Part shown: one piece after another, positions 4,774-23,546 of the stretch
How the letters are laid out: every line of letters starts with the position of its first letter
Numbering within the stretch: the first letter of the stretch is position 1
Source: Sebaldella termitidis ATCC 33386
Lineage (GTDB): Bacteria > Fusobacteriota > Fusobacteriia > Fusobacteriales > Leptotrichiaceae
Length of the DNA: 64,000 nt
Reading direction: 5' to 3'
Assembly: GCF_000024405.1 (NCBI RefSeq)
Contig: NC_013517.1
Coordinates: 620,001-684,000 of the forward strand
Program-made: the position numbers and the translations under genes
Notes under the pieces: model-generated
The model's input: only the letters and a program-made list of their open reading frames with translations
Told to the model about the DNA's origin: nothing
Databases searched by the model: none

Positions 4774-6105
4774 TTATTTATTTAAAAATCTGTTTGTTTC
4801 GCTTTTAACCACTTTAGCAAGAAATAAAAGACCTATAAGATTTGGAAGTGCCATCAGACCATTGGCAATATCCGAAAATACCCATACTCCTTTACTAAAG
4901 ACTATTCCCAGATAAATAGCAAGAGTAAAAATAATCCTGTAAATCATAATGGATTTTTCTCCTGCAAGATATTCCAGAGCTTTTTCGCCGTAATATGCCC
5001 AGCCGAGTATTGTAGAATAAGCAAAAAAGATCAGGCTTATAGTAACTATAATTCCGCCGATATCGCCGGGCAGAAGTATACTAAAGGCTTTTTCCGTAAG
5101 AACTGCACCTGTACCTTCAGTGGCACCGCTCATGACTATAATCAAACCGGTCATCGTACAGACAATAATTGTATCAATAAAGGTCTGTGTCATAGAAACA
5201 AGAGCCTGTGAAACCGGATCATTTGTTTTTGCAGCAGCAGCGGCAATAGGCGAGCTTCCTAGACCAGATTCATTGGAGAATATACCACGGGAAACTCCTT
5301 TTTGTATGGTTTTACTAAGTAAGGCACCAAATGTACCACCGATGGCTGCCTGAGGAATAAATGCCGATTTGAAAATTAAGACAAATGCAGGAATTATTTT
5401 ATCATAATGCATAAATATAATAACAAGAGAACTTACCACATAAAAAATAATCATTGTAGGAACTATAGCAGATGTAAAACGTCCTATTCTCTGAATTCCT
5501 CCCAGAATAACAGAACCTGTAAGAACAAGAAGAACGATCCCTGTTATTCTCGGATCTACATTAAAGCTTGTTTTCATTGCAGATGCTACTTCTGAAACCT
5601 GAACGGTATTACCTATACCAAATGAAGCAATAACTGCAAATATTGCGAATGCTACTCCCAGAAACTTTGAATTAAGTCCTTCCTGAAGATAATACATGGG
5701 TCCGCCTATCATATTCCCATATTCATCGACTTTTCTATACTTTACCGCAAGGACAGCTTCGCTGTATTTAGTCGCCATTCCGAAAAAACCTGTCATCCAC
5801 ATCCAGAATAATGCTCCGGGACCGCCTACGGATATTGCTCCGGCAACTCCGGCTATATTACCTGTTCCCACAGTACCTGCGAGTGCAGTCATCAGTGCCT
5901 GAAAATGTGAAATATCTCCCTCTCCGCTGTTCCCTTCTTCTTTTCTTTTGATAAATGCTAAATATAATGAATGACCCAGCTTTCTGAACTGAAGTCCTTT
6001 TAACAGAAATGTATAATATATTCCTGTTCCGAGTAATAGTATAATGAGGGGCAACCCCCAGACGAAGTCATTAATTTTATTTAACAACTGAATAAAATTC
6101 TCCAT
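4774..6105 (-). CDS. Sodium:alanine/glycine symporter, AGCS family
   Basis: 443-residue inner-membrane protein with about ten to eleven hydrophobic segments, the usual size of AlsT/DagA-type carriers that import alanine or glycine with Na+. Family motifs are clear: GTVGTGNIAGVAGAISVGGP near residue 75-95 (substrate and Na+ site), and FSNESGLGSSPIAAAAA near residue 277-293. A GAGGAG site precedes the ATG. Monocistronic, with its own terminator. It shares a short AT-rich spacer with the divergent methyltransferase gene. Confidence 0.93.
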   Translation of the reverse strand: MENFIQLLNKINDFVWGLPLIILLLGTGIYYTFLLKGLQFRKLGHSLYLAFIKRKEEGNSGEGDISHFQALMTALAGTVGTGNIAGVAGAISVGGPGALFWMWMTGFFGMATKYSEAVLAVKYRKVDEYGNMIGGPMYYLQEGLNSKFLGVAFAIFAVIASFGIGNTVQVSEVASAMKTSFNVDPRITGIVLLVLTGSVILGGIQRIGRFTSAIVPTMIIFYVVSSLVIIFMHYDKIIPAFVLIFKSAFIPQAAIGGTFGALLSKTIQKGVSRGIFSNESGLGSSPIAAAAAKTNDPVSQALVSMTQTFIDTIIVCTMTGLIIVMSGATEGTGAVLTEKAFSILLPGDIGGIIVTISLIFFAYSTILGWAYYGEKALEYLAGEKSIMIYRIIFTLAIYLGIVFSKGVWVFSDIANGLMALPNLIGLLFLAKVVKSETNRFLNK

Positions 6106-6237
6106 AAATATTTTCTCCTCTTAATAAGTAATCATGTTCCTTAAATTCTATCATATTTTATGTATTTATAAAAATAACAATAAATTATCTTAGGATAAGT
6201 TTTATATATGTGATGAAAAAGATAAAATTTTGGGGAC

Positions 6238-6266
6238 TTACACTTTTTATATTAAAATGGTATCAT
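6238..6266 (+). promoter_or_regulatory. Putative promoter of methyltransferase gene
   Basis: TTACAC (6238-6243), 17-base spacer, TATCAT (6261-6266), ending 21 bases before the chosen start codon. If used, longer versions of the protein starting further upstream would not be transcribed. Confidence 0.45.
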
Positions 6267-6287
6267 ACAAAGAAACTGGAGGTATTT

Positions 6288-7067
6288 ATGGATAAAAGAA
6301 CTGAAGAGGTACTGGCAAAATCACTCACAGCGGAAACAACAGAGCTTTTAGAGTATATTCCGTATCTGCTGCAGGATTTGTGGGAAATAGGCAGCAGTCC
6401 TGAAGATATGGAAGAATTGATAAAGAGAAATATAAAGCATTGTGAAAAGTTCAAAGTACTTGATCTTGCATGCGGAAAAGGTGCTGTTTCTGTAAAATTA
6501 GCTGAAAGTATGGGATTTCATGTAAAAGGAATTGATATAATAAGAGAATTTATAGAATTTGCACAGGAAAAAAGCGAAGAATATAATGTTTCTGATTTAT
6601 GTGAATTTCTTACAGGTGATATAAATGAAGCGGTTGCTGCGGAGAAAAATTATGATATTGTTATTTTCGGAGCTGCGGGTAATGTACTTGGAAATCCAGA
6701 AGAAACTATGAGGAAATTAAGCAGGACTGTGAAAAACGGCGGTTTTTTGCTTATTGACGAAGCTTATCTGATTAATTCGGCAGAAGATATAAAGTACAGA
6801 AATTATGAATATCTGACTTACGATGAATGGCTTGAAATATTTAAGAAATCTGGTCTTGCTTTAGTCGATGAAATAACGGCGGATATGGAACAGATATCCC
6901 ATGATAATACAGATGTAGATCTTATAGAAAAAAGAGCAGAAGAACTGATAAGAAAGTTTCCGGAAAAAGAGAGCATATTTAAAGGATATGTTCGCAGCCA
7001 GAAAAATGAATGTGAAGATCTTGAGGAAAATATAAAAGGGATAACATGGCTTTTACAAAAATTATAA
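6288..7067 (+). CDS. SAM-dependent class I methyltransferase
   Basis: 259 residues. The Rossmann-fold SAM site is plain: motif I VLDLACGKGAVSVKLAE at about residue 54-70, then VKGIDI (motif II acidic residue), and a post-motif VIFGAAGNVLG. The variable C-terminal part is acidic and helical. The start at 6288 has GGAGG five bases upstream; a 26-residue upstream extension has no ribosome site and overlaps the promoter. Substrate (small molecule or protein) cannot be told. A bidirectional terminator follows. Confidence 0.85.
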   Translation: MDKRTEEVLAKSLTAETTELLEYIPYLLQDLWEIGSSPEDMEELIKRNIKHCEKFKVLDLACGKGAVSVKLAESMGFHVKGIDIIREFIEFAQEKSEEYNVSDLCEFLTGDINEAVAAEKNYDIVIFGAAGNVLGNPEETMRKLSRTVKNGGFLLIDEAYLINSAEDIKYRNYEYLTYDEWLEIFKKSGLALVDEITADMEQISHDNTDVDLIEKRAEELIRKFPEKESIFKGYVRSQKNECEDLEENIKGITWLLQKL

Positions 7068-8718: not shown

Positions 8719-9696
8719 CTAATATTTTCTGTTAAGTTCCCACTTCCAAGCAGAACTTATAATAGAGTCCAAATTATATTCCGGTTTCCATCCCAGCTCT
8801 TTTCCGGCTTTTTCCGAATCAGCCACAAGAACTGCCGGATCTCCGGCTCTTGGTCCCTCTTCTTCTACCGTAAAATCAACACCGGTAATAGCTTTTGTTT
8901 TTTCTATTATCTCTTTTACGGTAAAGCCTTCTCCGCTTCCCAGATTATAATTCAAACTCATATTTTCATTTTTCATTTTTTCCATCCCCAGAATATGGGC
9001 CTTGGCAAGATCGTAAACATGCACAAAATCTCTTACGCACGTCCCGTCTTTGGTGTCGTAGTCTGTTCCGAATATTTTTATACTTTTTCTTCTGCCGCTT
9101 GCAGCCTGTAAAATCAAAGGGATCAAATGTGATTCTGGATCATGGCTTTCGCCTATCAGTCCGTTTTCATCAGAACCGCTTGCATTAAAATACCGGAGGA
9201 CAGTACTCTTTAGTCCGTAAGCATTATCATAATCTTTTAGAATTTCTTCTACCATGAGCTTGCTTTTTCCATATGGGTTTATAGGCTTCTGCGGATGTGT
9301 TTCGCTTATTTTTTCAGTTTCAGGTTCTCCGAATGTAGCGGCAGTAGAGCTGAAAACAAAGTATTTTACATTGCTTTCCACCATAGCGTCCAGAAGCTCC
9401 AAAACCTTAGAAACATTATTATTGTAATATTTTGCAGGAGCAGTGACAGATTCACCGACTTCGATAAAAGCGGCAAAATGCATCACAATATCTATTTTTT
9501 CATCAGAAAAAACTTTTTTCAGCCTTTCCTTATCTCCAAGATCTCCGTTAATTAATTTTACGCCTAGTATTTCTCCTGCTTCTTTATGTCCTTTTGACAG
9601 ATTATCATAAATTATCGGGGTATAGCCTTCTTTTTTTAACAGGTTAACTGTATGTGAACCGATATATCCGGCTCCGCCTACTACTAATATATTCAT
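8719..9696 (-). CDS. galE: UDP-glucose 4-epimerase
   Basis: 325-residue short-chain dehydrogenase/reductase converting UDP-galactose and UDP-glucose. The NAD site GGAGYIGSHT begins at residue 7, the catalytic Ser is in VFSSTAATFG and the Tyr-Lys pair is in NPYGKSK. Start 9696 is an ATG with GGGAGG ten bases upstream; an upstream TTG lies inside that ribosome site. Third gene of the operon; 138 bases separate it from galM, with only weak hairpins. Confidence 0.95.
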   Translation of the reverse strand: MNILVVGGAGYIGSHTVNLLKKEGYTPIIYDNLSKGHKEAGEILGVKLINGDLGDKERLKKVFSDEKIDIVMHFAAFIEVGESVTAPAKYYNNNVSKVLELLDAMVESNVKYFVFSSTAATFGEPETEKISETHPQKPINPYGKSKLMVEEILKDYDNAYGLKSTVLRYFNASGSDENGLIGESHDPESHLIPLILQAASGRRKSIKIFGTDYDTKDGTCVRDFVHVYDLAKAHILGMEKMKNENMSLNYNLGSGEGFTVKEIIEKTKAITGVDFTVEEEGPRAGDPAVLVADSEKAGKELGWKPEYNLDSIISSAWKWELNRKY

Positions 9697-9834
9697 TTTA
9701 AAAAATCCTCCCAAAAATTTTTTGAACTGTAAATATTCCTTATTTTTCAGTACTTTACTATGAAGAATTCTATTTCAAAAACTACAGATAAAGCTGTGCG
9801 GCTCAGAGGCTGAAGAAGTCAGGATACTGTCAGC
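9697..9834 (-). other. galM-galE spacer
   Basis: 138 bases with no gene. It has a minus-strand TTGAAA-15-TAAAGT that could be a weak internal promoter, but the spacing is short; no terminator hairpin with T-tract is seen, so galM-galE read-through is likely. Confidence 0.3.
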
Positions 9835-13917: not shown

Positions 13918-13950
13918 TTGACATTTATTTTGATTATCAATATAATTGAT
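13918..13950 (+). promoter_or_regulatory. Heme-operon promoter with overlapping Fur-like palindrome
   Basis: Full consensus TTGACA (13918-13923), 17-base spacer, TATAAT (13941-13946). Across the spacer and -10 lies TTGATTATCAA, and ATCAAT-ATA-ATTGAT (13936-13950), similar to the GATAAT-repeat architecture of Fur boxes. A repressor here would block RNA polymerase directly, fitting iron or heme control of the ten genes that follow. The regulator's identity is inferred, not shown. Confidence 0.7.
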
Positions 13951-14012
13951 TTAAGTAAAAAAGTATATATAAAGAAAATAATTTGTTGTTCAAAATAAAA
14001 AGGAAGTGGGAA

Positions 14013-14720
14013 ATGAAAGTAGTAAATTATTTAATTGTCGGCGGTATTTTCATGTGGCCGATATTGATGGCTCTGGTATGCGGAATGGCAGTGCTGCTGG
14101 AGAAAACATGGTATTTTCTGAAAAATGAAAAAGACATGACTGATAAGTTTAAGAAAAATCTTATAAAACTTATTCAAAACGGAAATAAAAAAGAGATTAT
14201 AGATTTTTGCAGTACAAAGAAAAATTCCGTTGCCAAAACAATAAAAAATACTCTGGAAACATTTGAAGAAGATGAAGGGGGAGATTTTGACCCGCGTTAT
14301 CTGGAAGAAATAGCCAAAGAAACTACTCTGGAACAGATTACCAGACTGGAGAAGGGAATGTGGCTTTTGAATATAGTGGCAACTGTATCACCTCAGCTTG
14401 GACTGCTTGGGACTGTAACAGGAATGATAATGGCATTTAAAGGTCTTTCGGGAGCAGGCGGAGCTGATTCGACAATAATAGCGGCAGGGATATCAGAAGC
14501 TCTTTATACTACAGCTTTTGGTTTGATAGTAGGAATTCCGGCACTTATTGCATATAACTTTTTTGACAGAAGAATAGACAGTGTACTGATAGAAGTGGAA
14601 CGAATGACTGTATATCTTACGAACAGCATGCAGAATAAAAACAACGGAATAAAAAATTCCTACAGAGTTTTTAATCAAGGAGAAGTCTATGAGAAATATG
14701 AGACGCAGAAGAAGAACTAG
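14013..14720 (+). CDS. exbB: ExbB-type proton channel subunit (MotA/TolQ/ExbB)
   Basis: 235 residues, inner membrane. Three hydrophobic segments: near residues 8-30, in the region of MWLLNIVATVSPQLGLLGTV (about 110-130), and YTTAFGLIVGIPALIAYNFF (about 160-180), with the long cytoplasmic loop after the first, as in ExbB/TolQ. The GLLGTVTGMI motif lines the proton path. It would energise the TonB receptor encoded two genes on. Start at 14013 has GGAAGTGGG just upstream. First gene of the heme operon, overlapping exbD by 32 bases. Confidence 0.93.
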   Translation: MKVVNYLIVGGIFMWPILMALVCGMAVLLEKTWYFLKNEKDMTDKFKKNLIKLIQNGNKKEIIDFCSTKKNSVAKTIKNTLETFEEDEGGDFDPRYLEEIAKETTLEQITRLEKGMWLLNIVATVSPQLGLLGTVTGMIMAFKGLSGAGGADSTIIAAGISEALYTTAFGLIVGIPALIAYNFFDRRIDSVLIEVERMTVYLTNSMQNKNNGIKNSYRVFNQGEVYEKYETQKKN

Positions 14721-15111
14721 AGGACCGGAAATTTCCATGCTGAATTTGATTGACATAATTTTCACGATGCTTATTTTCTTTATGGTAGCGACGACATTCA
14801 ATGTATACAGTAATCTGGGCATTAACGTACCTGATTCGGAAATGAAAAAAACAGAAACAAAGGAACAAAAAGTAGAAATTTTATTAAATAAAAATAAAGA
14901 ATATTTTTTAAAGACTGACAGTGCTGTAAGAAAAATAGATGTAAACAATCTTGAGGCTGAGGTGTCATTTTTGAAAAATACAAAGGAAAAAAACATAACT
15001 CTTACTGCGGATAAAGAGCTGGAATACGGGATGATAATAGAGCTTATGGGAAAATTAAAAAATGCGGGGATAAAGGATATTAATCTTAATATACAAGCTA
15101 CAGGTGTATAA
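14689..15111 (+). CDS. exbD: ExbD/TolR-type biopolymer transport protein
   Basis: 140 residues: a basic N-terminus (RNMRRRRRTRG), one membrane helix (LIDIIFTMLIFFMVATTF) containing the essential Asp near residue 22, then a periplasmic domain with the C-terminal ADKELEYGMIIELMGKLKNAG typical of ExbD. Partner of ExbB in the proton-driven motor. It overlaps exbB and is preceded by AAGGAGAAG, indicating coupled translation. Confidence 0.93.
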   Translation: MRNMRRRRRTRGPEISMLNLIDIIFTMLIFFMVATTFNVYSNLGINVPDSEMKKTETKEQKVEILLNKNKEYFLKTDSAVRKIDVNNLEAEVSFLKNTKEKNITLTADKELEYGMIIELMGKLKNAGIKDINLNIQATGV

Positions 15112-15134
15112 TAAAAATTCATATAGGAGGAAAA

Positions 15135-17129
15135 ATGTTTAAGAAAATTGCAATTTTATGTTTATTGGCTATTGCTCTTCTTGCCAATGCAAATGAGGAA
15201 GTCACTGTTACAGGTGAAATCAGAATGGACGAGAATATAACAACAACTACAGGTTTTGAAAGTACAGTAAAGGAGCAGGTAAAGAATGTTACTGTAATTT
15301 CAAGAGATGATATAGAAAAGAAAGGATATAAGAATCTTCAGGAAGTACTTAGAGATGCACCCGGTATTACATTTGTAGATGCCGGAGGCGGAGCAAGTAT
15401 TGATATGAGAGGTCAGGGAGATAAAGCTGTTTCTAAAGTAAAAGTACTTGTAGACGGAGTAATGATGAATCTTCTTGATACTTCACACGGAGTTACACCT
15501 ATTAATACAATAGGAGTATCAAATATTGAAAGAATAGAAATAATTCCCGGAGGCGGTGCCGTGCTGTACGGAAACGGAACTGTAGGGGGAGTGGTTAACA
15601 TTATAACTAAAAAACCTACTGAAACAGGCGGAAGAATAGGTGCGGAATATGGTTCGCACTATGATAAAAATGCTAATGCCTATCTGGGATTTAAGATAAA
15701 TGAGCAGCTGTACCTAAACTTTGATTACAGCGGAAGAGACGCACATACATACAGAGATAAGGAAGAATTCAGAAATGACTACTGGGCGGCAGGAATAAGA
15801 TATGATATAAGTGACAGACAATCATTGGCGTTTAAAGGAAGCAGATTCACAGAGGACGGGACTTCGGTAGGAGCTCTTACACAGGCTCAGATGGATCAGA
15901 ACAGAGAACAGGCAGGTTCGTCACTTACAAATTATGATGAAACAAGAACTGAATTTGTACTGGATTATGGAATAAATGTACTGGATAATCTTAGATTTGA
16001 CATTACAGGATATTGGCAGGAAGATGAGACTAAGACAAAACAGGATGCTAAAATGGGGTCAATCTCTTATACTTCAAACGGATTATTTGATGATGAAAAA
16101 TTTGGAATAAACCTGAAGGGTAAATATAATTATTCAAAAGGGGAATTAATATTCGGTTACAACTATCTGGACAATGATATGAAAAGACAGAGTCATTCAA
16201 TACTTGCATCAGGTGCAACAATGAGTAAAACAACAGTAGACCTTGGAAAAGTGACAAACAGTCTTTACATCTTAGAAAAGCATAATATTTTGGATAACTT
16301 GCAAATCATCGGCGGATTCAGAGAAGAGTGGGCTAAATATACTATAGACAGAACAGACGGTACTTATGCGCTTAACAAAGATGATAATGACAGTAACAGT
16401 GCATGGGAACTGGCTTTAAATTATCTTTACAGAGATACGGGGAATGTATATATGAGATATGAACACGGATTCTTATCACCTACACCAACACAGCTGACAA
16501 ATAAAGATCCGTTAACAGGATATTACTTAAATGACCTGAAATCGGAAACTTACGATACATATGAAATAGGAATGAAAGATGTAGTTTTAGGATCTTATGT
16601 TTCATTAACTGGATTCTATACTAAGACAAAGGATGAAATTTCACAGGTGTTTACTACCGGTCATGGTATGGGATGGGAATTCTATAACCTTGATGAAACT
16701 GAAAGATACGGAATCGAAGCATTTGCAGAGCAGTATTTCGGACCTGTAACAATAAACGAATCGATAGCTTATATAGATGCCGAAATTACTTCCGGAAGTA
16801 AAAAAGGACAGAATATACCTTATGTATCTGATATCAAAGCAACTATAGGCGTAAAATACGAAATTATCAAAAACCTGAATGCAGGATTAAACTTTAACTA
16901 TTACGGAGATGCCGAAGATGCTGCAGGAAAGAAAGTAGATGCTTACAGTACTACAGACTTCGTAGTAAGCTATGACTTTGAAAACGGAATTGGAATTATA
17001 GCCGGAGTTAATAATTTATTCAATGAAAAATATAATACATACCAAAGTACAAGCACAAGTACCGGGGTAACTGAATATAAACCCGCAGACGAAATTAATT
17101 ATTATGTAGGAGTGAGATATGCATTCTAG
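15135..17129 (+). CDS. TonB-dependent outer-membrane receptor (heme/iron)
   Basis: 664 residues. Signal peptide (cleavage about residue 19, ALLANA-NEE), TonB-box-like EEVTVTGE, plug domain (NVTVISRDDIEKKGY, LQEVLRDAPGITF, RIEIIPGGGAVLYG, GGVVNIITKK), then a 22-strand-type barrel ending in the aromatic NYYVGVRYAF. A stretch FLSPTPTQL followed by LNDLKSETYDTYEIG resembles the FRAP/NPNL region of heme receptors. Ligand is inferred as heme from the neighbouring HugZ and HutW genes; a siderophore or cobalamin cannot be excluded from the receptor alone. It overlaps the permease gene by 11 bases. Confidence 0.92.
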   Translation: MFKKIAILCLLAIALLANANEEVTVTGEIRMDENITTTTGFESTVKEQVKNVTVISRDDIEKKGYKNLQEVLRDAPGITFVDAGGGASIDMRGQGDKAVSKVKVLVDGVMMNLLDTSHGVTPINTIGVSNIERIEIIPGGGAVLYGNGTVGGVVNIITKKPTETGGRIGAEYGSHYDKNANAYLGFKINEQLYLNFDYSGRDAHTYRDKEEFRNDYWAAGIRYDISDRQSLAFKGSRFTEDGTSVGALTQAQMDQNREQAGSSLTNYDETRTEFVLDYGINVLDNLRFDITGYWQEDETKTKQDAKMGSISYTSNGLFDDEKFGINLKGKYNYSKGELIFGYNYLDNDMKRQSHSILASGATMSKTTVDLGKVTNSLYILEKHNILDNLQIIGGFREEWAKYTIDRTDGTYALNKDDNDSNSAWELALNYLYRDTGNVYMRYEHGFLSPTPTQLTNKDPLTGYYLNDLKSETYDTYEIGMKDVVLGSYVSLTGFYTKTKDEISQVFTTGHGMGWEFYNLDETERYGIEAFAEQYFGPVTINESIAYIDAEITSGSKKGQNIPYVSDIKATIGVKYEIIKNLNAGLNFNYYGDAEDAAGKKVDAYSTTDFVVSYDFENGIGIIAGVNNLFNEKYNTYQSTSTSTGVTEYKPADEINYYVGVRYAF

Positions 17130-18114
17130 TACTAGAAGGATTTATATTATCTTGATAGTTCTGTTGTTTATGATTTCTATATTCTCTCTTTCCACAGGAA
17201 GTGTCCAGATTCCGAAAACCGGAATTATAAAATATTTCCTTGGAATGGGGGGAGATTTAAGTGATTCAATGAAGACAATACTGATAAGTGTAAGGCTTCC
17301 AAGAATTTTGATGGCTGTACTGATAGGAATGCTGTTATCCAGCTCGGGAACAGTAGTACAGACAGTTTTTCAGAATCCTCTTGCAGATCCTTATATAATA
17401 GGTATAGCAGCTAGTGCCACTTTCGGGGCGGTACTAGCCTTTGTCTTTAATTTGCCTGATATTATGTACGGGGTTCTGGCTTTTGTAACATCTGTAATAG
17501 TTTCCATTATTATTTTCAAATTATCAAAATCCGGAAATAAGTCTGATATTACCACGCTTCTGATAATCGGAATCGCAATATCGTCTTTTCTGGGAGCCTT
17601 TACATCTTTTGCAATGTACCTTATAGGTGAGAATTCATTTAAGATAGTAACATGGATGATGGGATATCTGGGATCGGCAACATGGGAAAAAATAGTAATT
17701 TTATTGTTTCCCCTGATAGTATCTGTATTTTATTTTTTTGCCAAAAGACACGAACTGGATCTGCTTCTCAGCGGAGATGAAGAAGCACATGCTTTGGGAG
17801 TTAATGTAGAAAAACTGAAAAAAAGAATGCTGGTGGTTGCTTCGTTAATTGTGGGATTTTCTGTAGCATTTACAGGAATGATAGGTTTTGTGGGACTGAT
17901 AGTGCCGCATACGATGAGACTTCTGACTAAGAGCAGCAGCAATACAAGACTGATACCCCTTGCTTCCATTGGAGGAGGAGTTTTTCTGCTTTTTTGTGAT
18001 ACTATTGGAAGAACCATAATTGCACCTGTAGAAATACCAATCGGGGTTGTTACATCATTTTTCGGTGCACCGTTCTTTTTATATCTTGCTATGAGAAGTA
18101 AAAAGGGAGGATAA
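17119..18114 (+). CDS. FecCD/BtuC-family ABC permease
   Basis: 331 residues with about ten membrane helices. Family motifs: VRLPRILMAVLIGMLLSSSG, QTVFQNPLADPYIIGI, and in the second half GFVGLIVPHTMRLLTKSS, the loop contacting the ATPase. It forms the inner-membrane channel of the heme (or related) importer with the ATPase and lipoprotein that follow. Starts inside the end of the receptor gene. Confidence 0.93.
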   Translation: MHSSTRRIYIILIVLLFMISIFSLSTGSVQIPKTGIIKYFLGMGGDLSDSMKTILISVRLPRILMAVLIGMLLSSSGTVVQTVFQNPLADPYIIGIAASATFGAVLAFVFNLPDIMYGVLAFVTSVIVSIIIFKLSKSGNKSDITTLLIIGIAISSFLGAFTSFAMYLIGENSFKIVTWMMGYLGSATWEKIVILLFPLIVSVFYFFAKRHELDLLLSGDEEAHALGVNVEKLKKRMLVVASLIVGFSVAFTGMIGFVGLIVPHTMRLLTKSSSNTRLIPLASIGGGVFLLFCDTIGRTIIAPVEIPIGVVTSFFGAPFFLYLAMRSKKGG

Positions 18115-18116
18115 AA

Positions 18117-18896
18117 GTGAAACATAATGTAAAAGTAAATAAGCTGTCATTCAGCTATAATAACAATAATATACTGAATGAAGTGAATATTGACATAAAA
18201 AAGGGAGAGTTCACGGGAATACTGGGACCTAACGGCTGCGGCAAATCAACGCTTCTAAAAAATATACTGAGATATTTACAGCCGGAAAACGGGGTTATAG
18301 AAATTAAAGATAAAAATATAAAAGATTATAAACAAAAAGATCTGGCGAAAACACTGGGTTTTGTACCGCAAAAATCGTCTCTTTCCATGCCGCTTACCGT
18401 AGAGGATGTTGTTTATATGGGCAGGGTAGCGCATATGAAAAACAGCTGGGCGGGCTTTAGTGAAAATGATAATAAAATAGTAGATGATGTAATAAGAATA
18501 TTAAAGCTGGAAAAATTCAGAAAAAGACCTGCTTTTTCATTATCAGGCGGTGAATTTCAGAGGGTTCTTCTGGCACGGGCTTTGGTTCAGGAGCCGGAAA
18601 TATTGCTTCTTGATGAGCCTACATCAGCTCTTGATATTAATTATGCTCTTGAGATAATGAGACTTACCTCGCATTTTGTAAAAGAAGGCAGACTTACCGG
18701 AATAATGGTACTGCATGATTTGAATCTTGCGGCAATGTACTGTGATAATATAATATTTTTGAAAGACGGAAAAGTAAAGTATACAGGAAGTCCGACAGAG
18801 CTCTTTACTTCGGAGGTACTGGAGGAAATATACGGCTTTAAATGTGAAATAGTAAATAACGGTGATTATCCTTATGTATTACCGCATAAATTATAA
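18117..18896 (+). CDS. ABC transporter ATPase, FecE/BtuD/HmuV type
   Basis: 259 residues: Walker A GPNGCGKST near residue 38, Q-loop FVPQKSSLSMP, signature LSGGEFQRVLLARAL, Walker B ILLLDEPTSALD and H-loop VLHDLNLAA. Energises the permease encoded 2 bases upstream. The GTG/ATG area sits directly after the permease stop with GGGAGG, so translation is coupled. Confidence 0.94.
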   Translation: MKHNVKVNKLSFSYNNNNILNEVNIDIKKGEFTGILGPNGCGKSTLLKNILRYLQPENGVIEIKDKNIKDYKQKDLAKTLGFVPQKSSLSMPLTVEDVVYMGRVAHMKNSWAGFSENDNKIVDDVIRILKLEKFRKRPAFSLSGGEFQRVLLARALVQEPEILLLDEPTSALDINYALEIMRLTSHFVKEGRLTGIMVLHDLNLAAMYCDNIIFLKDGKVKYTGSPTELFTSEVLEEIYGFKCEIVNNGDYPYVLPHKL

Positions 18897-18955
18897 CTGT
18901 GCCTTTGCAGTTAACTGAATGGCATAGAGCTTTTAGACAGAAAAAGGAGGAAGAA

Positions 18956-19828
18956 ATGTACAAAAAGAGAATAATAATGTTTCTTATGATAGTTTTGGGT
19001 GCACTGGGATTAATTTCCTGCGGAAAAGAACCAGAGGCAAAAGAAGAAGCTGTAAAAGAAACTACAGTATATAAAAAAATAGTTGTGCTGGATCCGGCAG
19101 TAGTAGAGATGTTATACCTTCTGAATGCCGAAGACAGAATAGCAGCAGTAGCACATTCACAGACAACAGGTATATGGCCTGAGGATAAAACTAAGGATCT
19201 GCCTGATGTGGGAACTTTGGCAAAGCCTTCTCTGGAAAAAATAATTTCCTTTTCACCTGATCTGGTGGTATTAAGTATACATTCCACAGGTCTGGCTAAA
19301 GATCTGGAAGCACACGGTATCAAAACTGTATCTTTTCCTGCCAACAGTTTTGATGATATATTTAATAATTTTCTTGAGGTGGGGAAATTAATAGGAAAAG
19401 AAAACGAAGCACAAAAAATAACAGCAGAAAAAAAAGAAAAACTGGAAGAAATAAAGAAATCAGAACCGCTTAATAAAAAAGGCGCTTTTATATATTCTGC
19501 TTCACCTATGATGGCTTTCGGAGAGAATTCACTTCCGGGAGAGGTTTTGAAGATTTACGGTGTAGAAAATCTTACAGATAAGGTAAAAGGTGAAAGACCA
19601 ATACTGACACCCGAATATGTCATAGAAGAGAATCCTGATTTTCTTCTTGTAGGACTCGGAGTAAGCAGCGAAGATGAAATAGTAACTGCAAATCCGCAGT
19701 TAAAAGATACAAATGCAGTAAAGAATAAAAATATAATAAAAGTAAATTCACAGGCTCTGCTTAGAGGCTCGCCGAGAATAGTAGACGAAACTATGAATCT
19801 GTATGAAGAAATCAAAAATTTAAAGTAG
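18956..19828 (+). CDS. Periplasmic-binding lipoprotein, FecB/BtuF/HmuT type
   Basis: 290 residues. Lipoprotein signal with lipobox LISC at about residues 18-21, then an acidic linker and a class III binding fold: KIVVLDPAVVEMLYLL, AVAHSQTTGIWPE, VGTLAKPSLEKIISFSPDLVV, and a C-terminal PEYVIEENPDFLLVG and GSPRIVDE. It would bind incoming heme (or another chelate) in the periplasm and deliver it to the permease. Start 18956 follows AAAGGAGGAAG; a 19-residue upstream extension has none. Confidence 0.9.
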   Translation: MYKKRIIMFLMIVLGALGLISCGKEPEAKEEAVKETTVYKKIVVLDPAVVEMLYLLNAEDRIAAVAHSQTTGIWPEDKTKDLPDVGTLAKPSLEKIISFSPDLVVLSIHSTGLAKDLEAHGIKTVSFPANSFDDIFNNFLEVGKLIGKENEAQKITAEKKEKLEEIKKSEPLNKKGAFIYSASPMMAFGENSLPGEVLKIYGVENLTDKVKGERPILTPEYVIEENPDFLLVGLGVSSEDEIVTANPQLKDTNAVKNKNIIKVNSQALLRGSPRIVDETMNLYEEIKNLK

Positions 19829-19837
19829 AGGTATAAA

Positions 19838-20629
19838 ATGAAATTTTATGTGATTTCAATTATATTAACCGTTACAGCTTTATTTGTTCCGGTAATACAG
19901 CCCGCAATAGCAGGCGCAGGTGAAGATACAATAGCTGTAAGTCTCGAAAGTCTTGAATCAATGGATGGAGATGATGCCGGCGGCGGTAACGGCATGGAGT
20001 TACCTGAGGGTGGTGGAGGCAGCGGAGGCATCCCTCAGACGGAACAAAAACAAGTAACTCAAAAACATGAAGAAGTTACAAAAAACATACAGACAGAAAA
20101 ATCTGTAAATAATAACAAAACAGCAAGTACAAGTGAAAATTCTTCCAATGTAACAAAATCAGCTGGTTCTGAATCAACCGGGCAGGATAATACAGGCAAT
20201 TCCGGTGTTAATGGCGGAAGAGCCGGAAGTCCCGGAGGAGACGGAACCGGAGGAACACCCGGCGGAAAAGGAAAAGAAGGAGGAACCGGAAGTAAAGGTT
20301 CCGGCAATAATCCGATCGGTAAGAATCCTGATCCTGCACCAAAAACAACAACCAATTATGGATGTGTAAACGGGAAAGGATATAAAATGGTAACAAAACC
20401 CAAGATCAAATTAAACAGGGCACAGACACTGACTATACCATCAGGGACAAGGGTTACTGTAAACGGAGCTTTTAGTGCAAACGGTTCTCTGAATGTTTCA
20501 GGAGTCAGCGGAGGAAATGCCGAGGCACAGAGATTGGCAAGAAATGCAGCCTCAGGAATAAAAGTAAATGTAATAGACAAAACAATAACAAAATGTAATG
20601 TGACAATTACATATACTCTGGCTGAATAG
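19838..20629 (+). CDS. tonB: TonB-like energy transducer with glycine-rich linker
   Basis: 263 residues. One N-terminal membrane anchor (FYVISIILTVTALFVPVI), then about 150 residues of low-complexity linker rich in Gly, Ser, Thr and Asn (for example DGTGGTPGGKGKEGGTG), and a compact C-terminal domain: IPSGTRVTVNGAFSANGSLN, SGVSGGNAEAQRLARNAASG, CNVTITYTLAE. The beta-alpha-beta order and position fit the TonB C-terminal domain. The usual Pro/Lys/Glu spacer is replaced by a glycine-rich one, and two cysteines flank the C-terminal domain and could form a disulfide. TonB is the one part otherwise missing from this exbB-exbD-receptor operon. Assigned from architecture and context. Confidence 0.65.
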   Translation: MKFYVISIILTVTALFVPVIQPAIAGAGEDTIAVSLESLESMDGDDAGGGNGMELPEGGGGSGGIPQTEQKQVTQKHEEVTKNIQTEKSVNNNKTASTSENSSNVTKSAGSESTGQDNTGNSGVNGGRAGSPGGDGTGGTPGGKGKEGGTGSKGSGNNPIGKNPDPAPKTTTNYGCVNGKGYKMVTKPKIKLNRAQTLTIPSGTRVTVNGAFSANGSLNVSGVSGGNAEAQRLARNAASGIKVNVIDKTITKCNVTITYTLAE

Positions 20630-20644
20630 AACAGGAGTGATAAA

Positions 20645-21403
20645 ATGAAAGATACAATAATAAACCACATGAACCATGATCATATGGATGCTCTTATGGT
20701 TCTGGTGAGGTATCATAACGGAAAAGAAGATGTGAATAATGCAAAAATGCTTGATGTAGATAATAGAGGAATGAAAATTCTTGTAAATGAGGCAGAGGAG
20801 GTTTTTGTACCTTTTGGTAAGGATACGGAACTGTCTGAAGTAAAAGACGAATTGATAGATATGTTAAAAACAGCAAGAACAGCACTGGGGATAGAAAAAA
20901 AGCCGGGCGGACATATGAATGAGGCAGTAAAATATATCTCTGAATTTGGTTCTGTAGTATTGGGAACAGTAAATGCAGAAAGTGAACCGAATGTAACTTA
21001 TGCTCCTTATTTAAGATATGAAGATAAAAATTATATTTATATAAGTAAAATAGGTGTACATTATGATAATTTGAAAAATAACGGTAAGCTCGAGCTTCTG
21101 TTTCTGGAAGATGAGACAAAGGCGAAGGCTGTCACTGTAAGACAGCGTGTAAGATTCAAGGCACAGGCAGTTTTTCTGGAAAGAGATGAAAAATTCGGGA
21201 AAATAATGGATGCTTTTGAAGAAAAAGCCGGAAATACAATGAAAATAATGAGAGATATGACCGACTTTCATCTGGTGGAGCTGATATTTTTGGAAGGCAG
21301 CTTTGTAAAAGGGTTTGGGCAGGCATATACTATATCTGAAAGCGGTGAAATGGAACCGCTGACTTCGGATAAGCTTGGCAGAACACATGAAAGCAAAGAA
21401 TAG
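20645..21403 (+). CDS. hugZ: HugZ-family heme utilisation protein
   Basis: 252 residues. N-terminal DUF2470-like part (INHMNHDHMDALMVLVRYH) followed by a split-barrel pyridoxamine-phosphate-oxidase-like domain (GSVVLGTVNAESEPNVTYAP, FVKGFGQAYTI). Length and domain order match the Helicobacter/Campylobacter HugZ/ChuZ type, where a C-terminal histidine binds heme; here His248 lies in the tail LGRTHESKE. Role: heme binding or breakdown after import. Whether it is an oxygen-using heme oxygenase in an anaerobe is doubtful; heme storage or hand-off to HutW is also possible. 15 bases after the TonB-like gene. Confidence 0.85.
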   Translation: MKDTIINHMNHDHMDALMVLVRYHNGKEDVNNAKMLDVDNRGMKILVNEAEEVFVPFGKDTELSEVKDELIDMLKTARTALGIEKKPGGHMNEAVKYISEFGSVVLGTVNAESEPNVTYAPYLRYEDKNYIYISKIGVHYDNLKNNGKLELLFLEDETKAKAVTVRQRVRFKAQAVFLERDEKFGKIMDAFEEKAGNTMKIMRDMTDFHLVELIFLEGSFVKGFGQAYTISESGEMEPLTSDKLGRTHESKE

Positions 21404-21433
21404 AACAAATGGAGATAGAGAGAAAGGAAAAAT

Positions 21434-22681
21434 ATGTTTGAAAAGCGTTTTAAGTCACATCATGATGTAAAATCAATCATTGGTGCAAAATTTAAATCAT
21501 CTAAAAGAATGGGAACACCAGAAGAGATAAAAGTTCTTTTTGATTCGGAACCGAAAGATGAAACAGGAATTTTATATATTCATACTCCTTTCTGTGATAA
21601 GATCTGTTCATTCTGTAATTTGAACAGAAAGCAGCTGGACAATGACCTTGAGGAGTATACAGATTTTTTAATAAGCGAGTTTGAAAAATACGGGGCTACT
21701 AATTATATGAGACACAAAAGGCTGGAAGTAGTTTACTTTGGCGGCGGGACACCTACTATTTTTAAAGCCGGACAGCTTGAGAGAATATTGGAGTCTATAA
21801 ATAAAAATTTTATCCTGAAAGATAACTGTGAATTTACTTTTGAAACAACACTTCATAATCTTACGGATGAGAAGCTGGAAGTAATGGAAAGACTAGGGGT
21901 AAACAGATTAAGTATAGGAATACAGACTTTTTCCGATAGGGGAAGAAAAATATTAAACAGAACTTATGATAAAGAAACAGCAGTGAAAAGGCTGGGAGAA
22001 ATAAAAGCAAAGTTTAAGGGACTTGTCTGTGTGGATATTATTTATAATTATCCTGACCAGACTCCTGAGGAAGTGAAGGAAGATGCAGAGATAGTGCATA
22101 GTCTGAATATAGACAGTTCGAGTTTTTATTCACTGATGATACATGAAGGTTCGAAAATGTCAAAAGATATTAAGGATGATGTTTTTCATCTGGATTATAA
22201 ACTTGAAACTGATAAGGAACTGCATAATACATTCATGAATACACTTTTGGATACAGGAGAGTATGAAATACTTGAAATAACTAAAATAAATAAAAAGGGC
22301 AGAGATAAGTATAAATATATTACACTGTCAAACAAGGGAACAGATATTTTGCCGGTGGGACTCGGAGCAGGAGGAAAACTGGGGAATTATGAGATGTTCA
22401 GAATGAATTATGAAAGGCAGTTCTTTTCATACAGCAGTGACGAAGAACAGAGGATAAAAAATTTAAGCGGATTATTCCAGTATCCGGAAGTGTACTTTGA
22501 AGACATAAAGAAATTTGTGCCGGATAATACTTTTAATAAAATCTATAAATTGCTTGAGGGGATGAAAGAAAAGGAATTAATGGATATAAACAAGGATCAT
22601 ATAGAATTAAAAGGCGATGGTTTGTTTTGGGGAAATACAATAGGGCGTGAAGTAATTTCAATTAGTTTAGAGGAGGAATAA
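21434..22681 (+). CDS. hutW: Anaerobic heme-degrading radical SAM methyltransferase (HutW/ChuW type)
   Basis: 415 residues, HemN-like radical SAM fold. The 4Fe-4S cluster ligands are Cys54, Cys58 and Cys61 in CDKICSFC, followed by YFGGGTPT, a SAM-binding glycine motif, and RLSIGIQTF. The heme-operon setting and start FEKRFKSHHDVK point to the ChuW/HutW/HmuW branch, which methylates and opens the heme ring without oxygen to give anaerobilin and free iron, rather than HemN coproporphyrinogen oxidase or HemW. Overlap with the next gene is nil (1-base gap), suggesting coupled synthesis with its flavodoxin. Confidence 0.87.
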   Translation: MFEKRFKSHHDVKSIIGAKFKSSKRMGTPEEIKVLFDSEPKDETGILYIHTPFCDKICSFCNLNRKQLDNDLEEYTDFLISEFEKYGATNYMRHKRLEVVYFGGGTPTIFKAGQLERILESINKNFILKDNCEFTFETTLHNLTDEKLEVMERLGVNRLSIGIQTFSDRGRKILNRTYDKETAVKRLGEIKAKFKGLVCVDIIYNYPDQTPEEVKEDAEIVHSLNIDSSSFYSLMIHEGSKMSKDIKDDVFHLDYKLETDKELHNTFMNTLLDTGEYEILEITKINKKGRDKYKYITLSNKGTDILPVGLGAGGKLGNYEMFRMNYERQFFSYSSDEEQRIKNLSGLFQYPEVYFEDIKKFVPDNTFNKIYKLLEGMKEKELMDINKDHIELKGDGLFWGNTIGREVISISLEEE

Positions 22682-22682
22682 A

Positions 22683-23183
22683 ATGAAAACACTTGTAACA
22701 TATTCAACATTGACAGGGAACACAAAAAAAGTAGCAGAGGCTGTGTTTGAAGCAGTCAGCGGTGAAAAAGAAATAATGGATATAAAAAGCATAAAAGAAA
22801 CAGACGGATATGACAGAATACTTGTAGGATACTGGGTTGATAAAGGTGATGCAAATGAAGAGGCTAAAAAATTCATGGAAACACTGAAAAATAAAAAAGT
22901 AGGAACATTTGGAACTTTGGGTGCATATCCTGATTCAGAGCATGCACAAAAGTGTGTGGAAAAAATAAGTGAAGCATTAAAAGCAAATGGTAATACAGTA
23001 GTTGCAGAATTTATATGTCAGGGCGCGATAGATCCTAAAATAATAGAAACAATGAGAAAAATGGGATCGAACGGACCGCATGCACCTACGCCGGAAAGAG
23101 AAGCAAGATGGGCTGAAGCAGCAAAGCATCCAAATGAAGCAGATTTTTCAGCTGCCAAGGATGTTTTCGGGAAATTAGATTAA
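22683..23183 (+). CDS. Flavodoxin-family protein linked to heme degradation
   Basis: 166 residues. FMN phosphate loop STLTGNTKK at residues 8-16; WVDKGDANE and GTLGAYPDSEHA fill the other FMN loops. In fusobacterial heme loci a flavodoxin is the electron donor or anaerobilin-handling partner of the radical SAM enzyme (family knowledge recalled, not tested here). The C-terminal extension rich in His/Pro/Ala (GPHAPTPEREARWAEAAKHP) is longer than in classical flavodoxins and could hold porphyrin. Last gene of the ten-gene operon; a terminator follows. Confidence 0.88.
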   Translation: MKTLVTYSTLTGNTKKVAEAVFEAVSGEKEIMDIKSIKETDGYDRILVGYWVDKGDANEEAKKFMETLKNKKVGTFGTLGAYPDSEHAQKCVEKISEALKANGNTVVAEFICQGAIDPKIIETMRKMGSNGPHAPTPEREARWAEAAKHPNEADFSAAKDVFGKLD

Positions 23184-23258
23184 ACATATTGTTTGGAAAT
23201 AACTGTGCTCTCTTAATAAATATTATATAAAGACTATTTAACTTTCAGTAGTAAGAAT

Positions 23259-23310
23259 GGAACCTAAAAAATACAGAATATACTGTAAAATTTTTGAAGG
23301 TTCCTTTTTT
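23259..23310 (+). terminator. Terminator of the heme operon
   Basis: GGAACCT (23259-23265) pairs with AGGTTCC (23298-23304); an inner AAAAATACAG/CTGTAAAATTTTT helix extends it, and six T follow. Confidence 0.85.
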
Positions 23311-23546
23311 ATGTAAAGAAGCAGGCTGGAAATGAAAATATTATGCAAAAAAAGATATATGAAAATGAACAGAAAAATTTCAAAACCGGAGACAGATAAC
23401 CTCACATTTATCAAAGTATTTTGCAGGAATATAAAAACAGGGATAAAAATCCCTGTATCTATTAATTTTATTAAGTTTTCTAGAGTTTCTACAGAAATTG
23501 GGACACTCTCTGGAAACACTTTAAAGGTCAGAATATTTTCTTGGAC
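23311..23546. other. Spacer between heme operon and guanine deaminase
   Basis: 236 bases without a supported gene. A 72-codon rightward frame exists (23332-23550) but has no ribosome site and runs through the guaD terminator, so I do not call it. Confidence 0.5.
23430..23456 (-). terminator. Terminator of guaD
   Basis: ACAGGGAT and ATCCCTGT (23437-23456) form the hairpin; on the minus strand TTTTTATATT follows. Confidence 0.75.

What the first reader, a model, noticed from the sequence alone, without database searches (positions are those of the whole stretch)
13918..23310. Complete anaerobic heme capture-and-degradation operon
Ten genes with overlaps or gaps mostly under 50 bases encode ExbB, ExbD, a TonB receptor, a three-part ABC importer, a TonB-like protein, HugZ, a HutW/ChuW radical SAM enzyme and a flavodoxin, between one consensus promoter and one terminator. 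Seen: the gene order and motifs. Known: HutW/ChuW enzymes open heme without oxygen. Inferred: the operon handles heme from the cell surface to ring opening in an anaerobe, with HugZ as binder rather than oxygen-dependent oxygenase.
Basis: partly seen in the sequence, partly recalled or inferred. Interest (0 to 1): 0.75.

Follow-up and report, generated by a model that had tools for sequence, protein, structure and literature searches.

The report
Anaerobic heme import and breakdown operon
Ten neighbouring genes in a Sebaldella (anaerobic, Fusobacteriota) genome encode a full route from capturing heme at the cell surface to opening its ring without oxygen; this is a known kind of gene cluster, but relatives in which two of its proteins are fused point to an untested partnership between HugZ and the ring-opening enzyme.

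Summary
Ten + strand genes (14013-23183) lie between a perfect sigma-70 promoter (13918-13946) and a strong hairpin terminator (23259-23311): exbB, exbD, TonB-dependent receptor, FecCD permease, ATPase, binding lipoprotein, TonB, HugZ, HmuW, HmuF. The same order recurs in two other Sebaldella and in two other Leptotrichiaceae genera. The radical SAM protein lies in the fusobacterial HmuW clade (100/99), joined to ChuW/HutW and apart from HemW/HemN (99/97). The flavodoxin keeps the heme-ligand His of FldH (H133), so it is more likely the HmuF heme carrier/anaerobilin reductase than a plain electron donor. Gene 7 is a divergent TonB, shown by graded alignment and predicted fold. In this genome the operon holds the only detected ExbD, TonB and plug-domain receptor, and no ferrochelatase is detected. 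Such clusters are published for Fusobacterium and Leptotrichia (PMC10404700), so this is a new member of a known kind. One new lead: in two related genera HugZ, or its N-terminal domain, is fused in frame to HmuW. That supports HugZ as a partner of the anaerobic enzyme. But HugZ's heme and propionate residues are intact, so oxygenase activity is not excluded. Heme specificity of receptor and lipoprotein rests on gene context.

The parts
13918..13946 (+). Promoter: TTGACA-17 nt-TATAAT, with a Fur-box-like palindrome TTGATTATCAA (13930-13940) between the hexamers
   Evidence: 12/12 match; palindrome; same arrangement upstream of the operon in L044 and L045. Fur binding is inferred.
14013..14720 (+). 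exbB (proton channel)
   Evidence: PF01618 105 bits
14689..15111 (+). exbD; the only ExbD/TolR-family gene detected in the genome
   Evidence: PF02472 87 bits; single genome hit
15135..17129 (+). hmuR, TonB-dependent outer-membrane receptor; the only plug-domain receptor detected in the genome
   Evidence: PF00593 and PF07715; single genome hit
17119..18114 (+). hmuU, FecCD-family permease
   Evidence: PF01032 299 bits
18117..18896 (+). hmuV, ABC ATPase (GTG start)
   Evidence: best NCBIfam: heme ABC ATPase NF010068, 248 bits, cut-off 261
18956..19828 (+). hmuT, periplasmic-binding lipoprotein
   Evidence: PF01497 120 bits; PDB relatives are siderophore, heme and B12 binders
19838..20629 (+). 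tonB, divergent: N-terminal anchor, Gly-rich linker, C-terminal domain (about 20345-20626) with two extra Cys
   Evidence: graded alignment A1; TonB_C in 12 of 14 aligned relatives; CTD model pLDDT 81 with best PDB matches all TonB/TolA C-terminal domains
20645..21403 (+). hugZ (DUF2470 + PNPOx-like split barrel)
   Evidence: TIGR04109 249 bits, over cut-off 240; 3swj ChuZ 9.9e-48; R166 and C-tail H248 kept
21434..22681 (+). hmuW, predicted anaerobilin synthase (radical SAM, CxxxCxxC)
   Evidence: TIGR04107 best family, 239.6 bits; phylogeny
22683..23183 (+). hmuF, flavodoxin-like predicted heme carrier and anaerobilin reductase; heme-ligand His133
   Evidence: 8g64 7.9e-32; H133 aligns with FldH His134
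23259..23311 (+). Intrinsic terminator (long hairpin plus T run)
   Evidence: -15.6 kcal/mol, z -4.05

Best explanation
This is the Sebaldella version of the fusobacterial hmu operon. HmuR takes up heme at the outer membrane, powered by the co-encoded ExbB-ExbD-TonB, which serves this single receptor. HmuT-HmuUV carry heme into the cytoplasm. There HmuF (and, as I infer, HugZ) hold the heme and hand it to HmuW. HmuW opens the ring by oxygen-independent radical SAM chemistry, giving Fe2+ and anaerobilin, and HmuF reduces the anaerobilin. A Fur-like repressor probably controls the promoter. Shown here: gene content, order, conservation, homology, placement of HmuW, key residues, and the sole ExbD/TonB/plug receptor found. 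Inferred: the substrate, the reactions in this species, regulation, and HugZ's role.
For: Same ten-gene order in three Sebaldella genomes and in L046, L053 and L055 of other Leptotrichiaceae genera (in L055 the hugZ and hmuW places are taken by a fusion); partial clusters in many Fusobacteriaceae. HmuW clade 100/99 including F. vincentii HmuW, which sits in the published hmuTRUVWF order; split from HemW/HemN 99/97. The F. vincentii protein also misses the TIGR04107 cut-off (213 versus 400), so that cut-off is not informative. HmuF His133 = FldH His134. Biochemistry of F. nucleatum HmuW/HmuF: PMC10404700. One plug receptor, one ExbD and one TonB in the genome. No ferrochelatase and no cytochrome bd found; ALAD present, so imported heme is more likely an iron source than a replacement for home-made heme.
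Against: Receptor and lipoprotein are not diagnostic: the best solved relatives of the receptor are YncD/PqqU and of the lipoprotein YclQ-type siderophore binders, with ShuT and Yersinia HmuT weaker. At the position of the 'IGY' Tyr of E. coli ShuT, which I recall as its heme ligand, the lipoprotein has Thr; F. vincentii HmuT has Asn. No expression or biochemical data exist for this species.
Confidence: 0.88

Rival explanations
1. HugZ in this operon is an oxygen-dependent heme oxygenase used when the cell meets traces of oxygen, while HmuW works in anoxia, as proposed for HutZ and HutW of Vibrio cholerae.
For: HugZ is over the TIGR04109 cut-off; Arg166 and a C-terminal-loop His (H248), the residues tied to heme binding in H. 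pylori HugZ, are kept (PMC6018153). In V. cholerae HutX feeds HutZ in air and HutW in anoxia (PMC12670364).
Against: HugZ and its relatives are fused in frame to HmuW in L055 (complete HugZ) and L051 (degenerate DUF2470 domain); no cytochrome bd is found.
Confidence: 0.35
2. The transport half serves another ligand, a siderophore or a cobalamin, and only the cytoplasmic half handles heme.
For: Sequence matches of receptor, permease and lipoprotein are shared with siderophore and B12 systems.
Against: Conserved ten-gene linkage to hugZ-hmuW-hmuF across genera; orthologous receptor and lipoprotein in the hmuTRUVWF cluster, whose receptor HmuR is described as the heme receptor in F. nucleatum (PMC10404700).
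Confidence: 0.06
3. The radical SAM protein is a HemW-like heme chaperone or a HemN-like coproporphyrinogen oxidase, not an anaerobilin synthase.
For: Related fold and 153 bits to the HemW model; public records call relatives coproporphyrinogen-III oxidase family.
Against: Groups with HmuW and ChuW/HutW with 99/97 support; holding it with HemW gives p-AU 0.069 (unfavourable, not rejected at 0.05); the genome has a separate HemW-like protein (L002).
Confidence: 0.04

Closest known systems
hmuTRUVWF cluster of Fusobacterium nucleatum (HmuW anaerobilin synthase, HmuF/FldH; PMC10404700)
   Same: Orthologous receptor, permease, ATPase, lipoprotein, HmuW and HmuF; hmuW-hmuF adjacent; HmuF heme-ligand His kept
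   Different: Different gene order (receptor first, lipoprotein after the ATPase); exbB, exbD, tonB and hugZ lie inside the operon; Sebaldella is not named in that paper
Leptotrichia hmu clusters listed in PMC10404700
   Same: hmuR-U-V-T-hugZ-W-F order, seen here in L048-L050 and L052
   Different: Those loci lack exbB, exbD and tonB next to the receptor; their HmuF and HugZ lack the heme-ligand His residues
chu/hut operons of E. coli and Vibrio (ChuW/HutW, HutX, HutZ, ChuY)
   Same: Radical SAM heme opening beside a heme importer; HutZ is a relative of HugZ
   Different: HmuW forms its own clade (26-29% identity); no HutX, ChuS or ChuY gene in the operon; HmuF takes their place
HugZ/ChuZ of Helicobacter and Campylobacter
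   Same: DUF2470 + PNPOx architecture, Arg166, C-tail His
   Different: Here in an operon with an anaerobic heme-opening enzyme, and fused to it in two related genera

Membership tests
HmuW/ChuW/HutW anaerobilin synthase | Radical SAM CxxxCxxC motif | tested here: met
   CDKICSFC in window, shared with nearly all fusobacterial HmuW aligned
HmuW/ChuW/HutW anaerobilin synthase | Groups with characterised members and apart from HemW/HemN | tested here: met
   99/97 and 100/99 support
HmuW/ChuW/HutW anaerobilin synthase | Reaches curated NCBIfam cut-off of TIGR04107 | tested here: inconclusive
   239.6 versus 400 bits, so the cut-off itself is not reached; F. vincentii HmuW, ortholog of the characterised F. 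nucleatum enzyme, also fails at 213, so the cut-off fits ChuW/HutW only
HmuW/ChuW/HutW anaerobilin synthase | Converts heme to anaerobilin | not testable with these tools
   needs purified enzyme
HmuF/FldH heme-binding flavodoxins | Flavodoxin fold family with heme-ligand His in the helical cap | tested here: met
   PF12641 218 bits; 8g64 match; H133 aligned with FldH His134
HugZ | DUF2470 + PNPOx with TIGR04109 over cut-off | tested here: met
   249 versus 240 bits
HugZ | Arg166 and C-terminal-loop heme-ligand His | tested here: met
   R166 in register; H248 in the tail, not alignable residue by residue
HugZ | Oxygen-dependent heme degradation | not testable with these tools
   needs assay
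TonB | N-terminal anchor, linker, TonB C-terminal fold, next to ExbBD | tested here: met
   E-values of the fold match are weak (0.06) but all top matches are TonB or TolA
TonB | Pfam TonB_C match | tested here: not met
   window protein has no match, 12 of 14 aligned rows do
Heme TonB-dependent receptor | Curated heme-receptor model TIGR01785 over cut-off | tested here: not met
   174 versus 316.85 bits

The most novel reading that the evidence does not exclude
HugZ is a dedicated heme-feeding partner (in some species a domain) of the anaerobic heme-opening enzyme HmuW, so in these anaerobes a 'heme oxygenase' family protein works without oxygen. Basis: a complete HugZ (DUF2470 + PNPOx) joined in frame to HmuW in a single-contig genome (L055), a DUF2470-HmuW fusion in a second genus (L051), and one HugZ subclade (99/100) holding both fused copies and the Leptotrichia HugZs, in which HmuF and HugZ have both lost their heme-ligand His.
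Probability: 0.45. Interest if true: 0.6.

Novelty: new member of a known kind. Interest (0 to 1): 0.4.

Why it matters
It extends anaerobic heme degradation to Sebaldella and shows a complete, self-contained example: the genome's only detected TonB system and receptor sit in one operon with heme breakdown. The HugZ-HmuW fusions found in relatives make an unresolved question, what HugZ-family proteins do beside oxygen-independent heme-opening enzymes, directly testable with a single polypeptide.

Tried and rejected
Fur regulon: the promoter palindrome pattern was searched genome-wide; the only exact hit is this operon, and near matches (104 versus 54 for the reversed control) do not lie before recognisable iron genes, so no regulon is claimed. 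One near match lies 152 nt before an ALAD gene; left as chance. Sequence-only heme specificity of HmuR and HmuT: not decided. An extracellular 'HG' loop in the receptor is shared by some relatives only. First HmuW tree had badly extracted own-genome paralogs; rebuilt. Sebaldella plus heme literature: nothing relevant. HugZ-radical SAM fusion literature: nothing found in the held library.

Full report
WHAT IS THERE. Ten + strand ORFs lie at 14013-23183, between a 12/12 promoter at 13918-13946 and a hairpin terminator at 23259-23311 (-15.6 kcal/mol, z -4.05). Neighbours on both sides run on the - strand. Junctions are overlaps or gaps of 1-30 nt, with one gap of 59 nt before the lipoprotein. Pfam and NCBIfam name nine of the ten. 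The promoter, with a TTGATWATCAA palindrome between its hexamers, is kept upstream of the same operon in two other Sebaldella genomes, with one mismatch in one of them. The genus is Sebaldella: the same-genus genome G088 has the contig of a named Sebaldella record, of equal length 50,428.

CONSERVATION. HmuW relatives occur in 54 of 98 Fusobacteriota genomes. The exact ten-gene order recurs in L044 and L045 (Sebaldella) and in L046 and L053 (another genus of the family); L055 (a further genus) has the same order with hugZ fused to hmuW; L047 holds the end of such an operon at a contig edge. Leptotrichia-type loci (L048-L050, L052) have receptor-U-V-T-HugZ-W-F without exbBD and tonB. Fusobacteriaceae have many rearranged clusters, some with two HmuW copies. 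This is far more than chance adjacency.

THE RADICAL SAM ENZYME. In a tree with E. coli ChuW, Rahnella and Vibrio HutW, E. coli HemW and HemN and the genome's own HemW-like protein, the window protein lies in a fusobacterial HmuW clade (100/99) that includes F. vincentii HmuW in the hmuTRUVWF order. That clade joins ChuW/HutW against HemW/HemN with 99/97. Long branches are present, and forcing it with HemW is disfavoured but not rejected (p-AU 0.069). It scores below the TIGR04107 cut-off, but so does F. vincentii HmuW, ortholog of the characterised F. nucleatum enzyme (PMC10404700).

THE FLAVODOXIN. It matches the FldH structure 8g64 (that 8g64 is FldH is my reading of its sequence, whose His134 and length fit PMC10404700). 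Its His133 aligns with FldH His134, the heme ligand (PMC10404700). So it is best read as HmuF: a heme carrier that passes heme to HmuW and then reduces anaerobilin.

GENE 7 IS TonB. The window protein has no family hit, but it aligns in steps through Leptotrichiaceae relatives, which keep a YP..AERLG motif, to canonical TonB proteins beside exbBD in Fusobacteriaceae; 12 of 14 rows hit TonB_C. A two-sequence AlphaFold model of its C-terminal domain (pLDDT 81, pTM 0.70) has TonB or TolA C-terminal domains as its 17 best PDB matches, with weak E-values from 0.06. Sebaldella TonBs have a Gly-rich linker (22-25% Gly against 5-11% in three related loci) and two Cys in the C-terminal domain that their family relatives share.

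WHOLE-GENOME CONTEXT. The operon holds the genome's only detected plug-domain receptor, only ExbD and only TonB. No ferrochelatase or cytochrome bd is detected; ALAD is present, which fits a cobalamin route (inference). Heme therefore looks like an iron source. Other heme proteins were not searched.

HugZ. HugZ passes its curated cut-off and keeps Arg166 and a C-tail His, the residues tied to heme binding in H. pylori HugZ (PMC6018153). Residues alone thus do not show that it is 'only a binder'. Independent evidence came from relatives. In L055 (a genome in one contig) a complete HugZ is joined in frame to HmuW: DUF2470, PNPOx and Radical_SAM in one 707-aa ORF, after a separate DUF2470-only ORF. 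In L051 a degenerate DUF2470 domain (20.7 bits, just under the Pfam cut-off of 22) is joined to HmuW, beside an intact HugZ. Both fused copies and the Leptotrichia HugZs form one subclade (99/100). In five Leptotrichia-type loci HmuF has Phe at the ligand position and HugZ lacks a tail His: one lineage, so one event. No report of such a fusion was found in the held papers. Internal initiation at a GTG in L055 is not excluded. These facts favour, but do not prove, HugZ acting with HmuW. In V. cholerae HutX feeds HutZ in air and HutW in anoxia (PMC12670364), so the aerobic-backup rival stays open.

WEAK POINTS. Receptor and lipoprotein specificity for heme rests on context. Fur control is a guess from a palindrome. 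Co-transcription is inferred.

VERDICT. The finding is real and its reading is essentially right. The system is a new member of a published kind. The HugZ-HmuW fusions in relatives are the part a specialist would want to follow.

Noticed in passing
L055:9781-11901: In-frame HugZ-HmuW fusion (DUF2470 + PNPOx + Radical_SAM) in a single-contig Leptotrichiaceae genome, preceded by a DUF2470-only ORF (9416-9718).
   Followed up: yes
L051:6786-8432: Degenerate DUF2470 domain fused to HmuW, next to an intact stand-alone HugZ (5969-6736).
   Followed up: yes
L048-L050, L052, L054: HmuF heme-ligand His replaced by Phe, and the C-terminal-tail His of HugZ lost, in the same five loci of one lineage.
   Followed up: partly
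L072 and L073: Tandem repeats of an hmuW-hmuR-hmuU-hmuV-hmuT unit, two copies each.
   Followed up: no
window 19838-20629: Sebaldella TonB has a Gly-rich linker and two extra Cys in its C-terminal domain, and is not recognised by Pfam TonB_C.
   Followed up: partly
L010 and L043: Cetobacterium hmuW stands alone on a large plasmid, away from heme transport genes, between a MurR/RpiR-type regulator (SIS domain) and a potassium channel gene.
   Followed up: no
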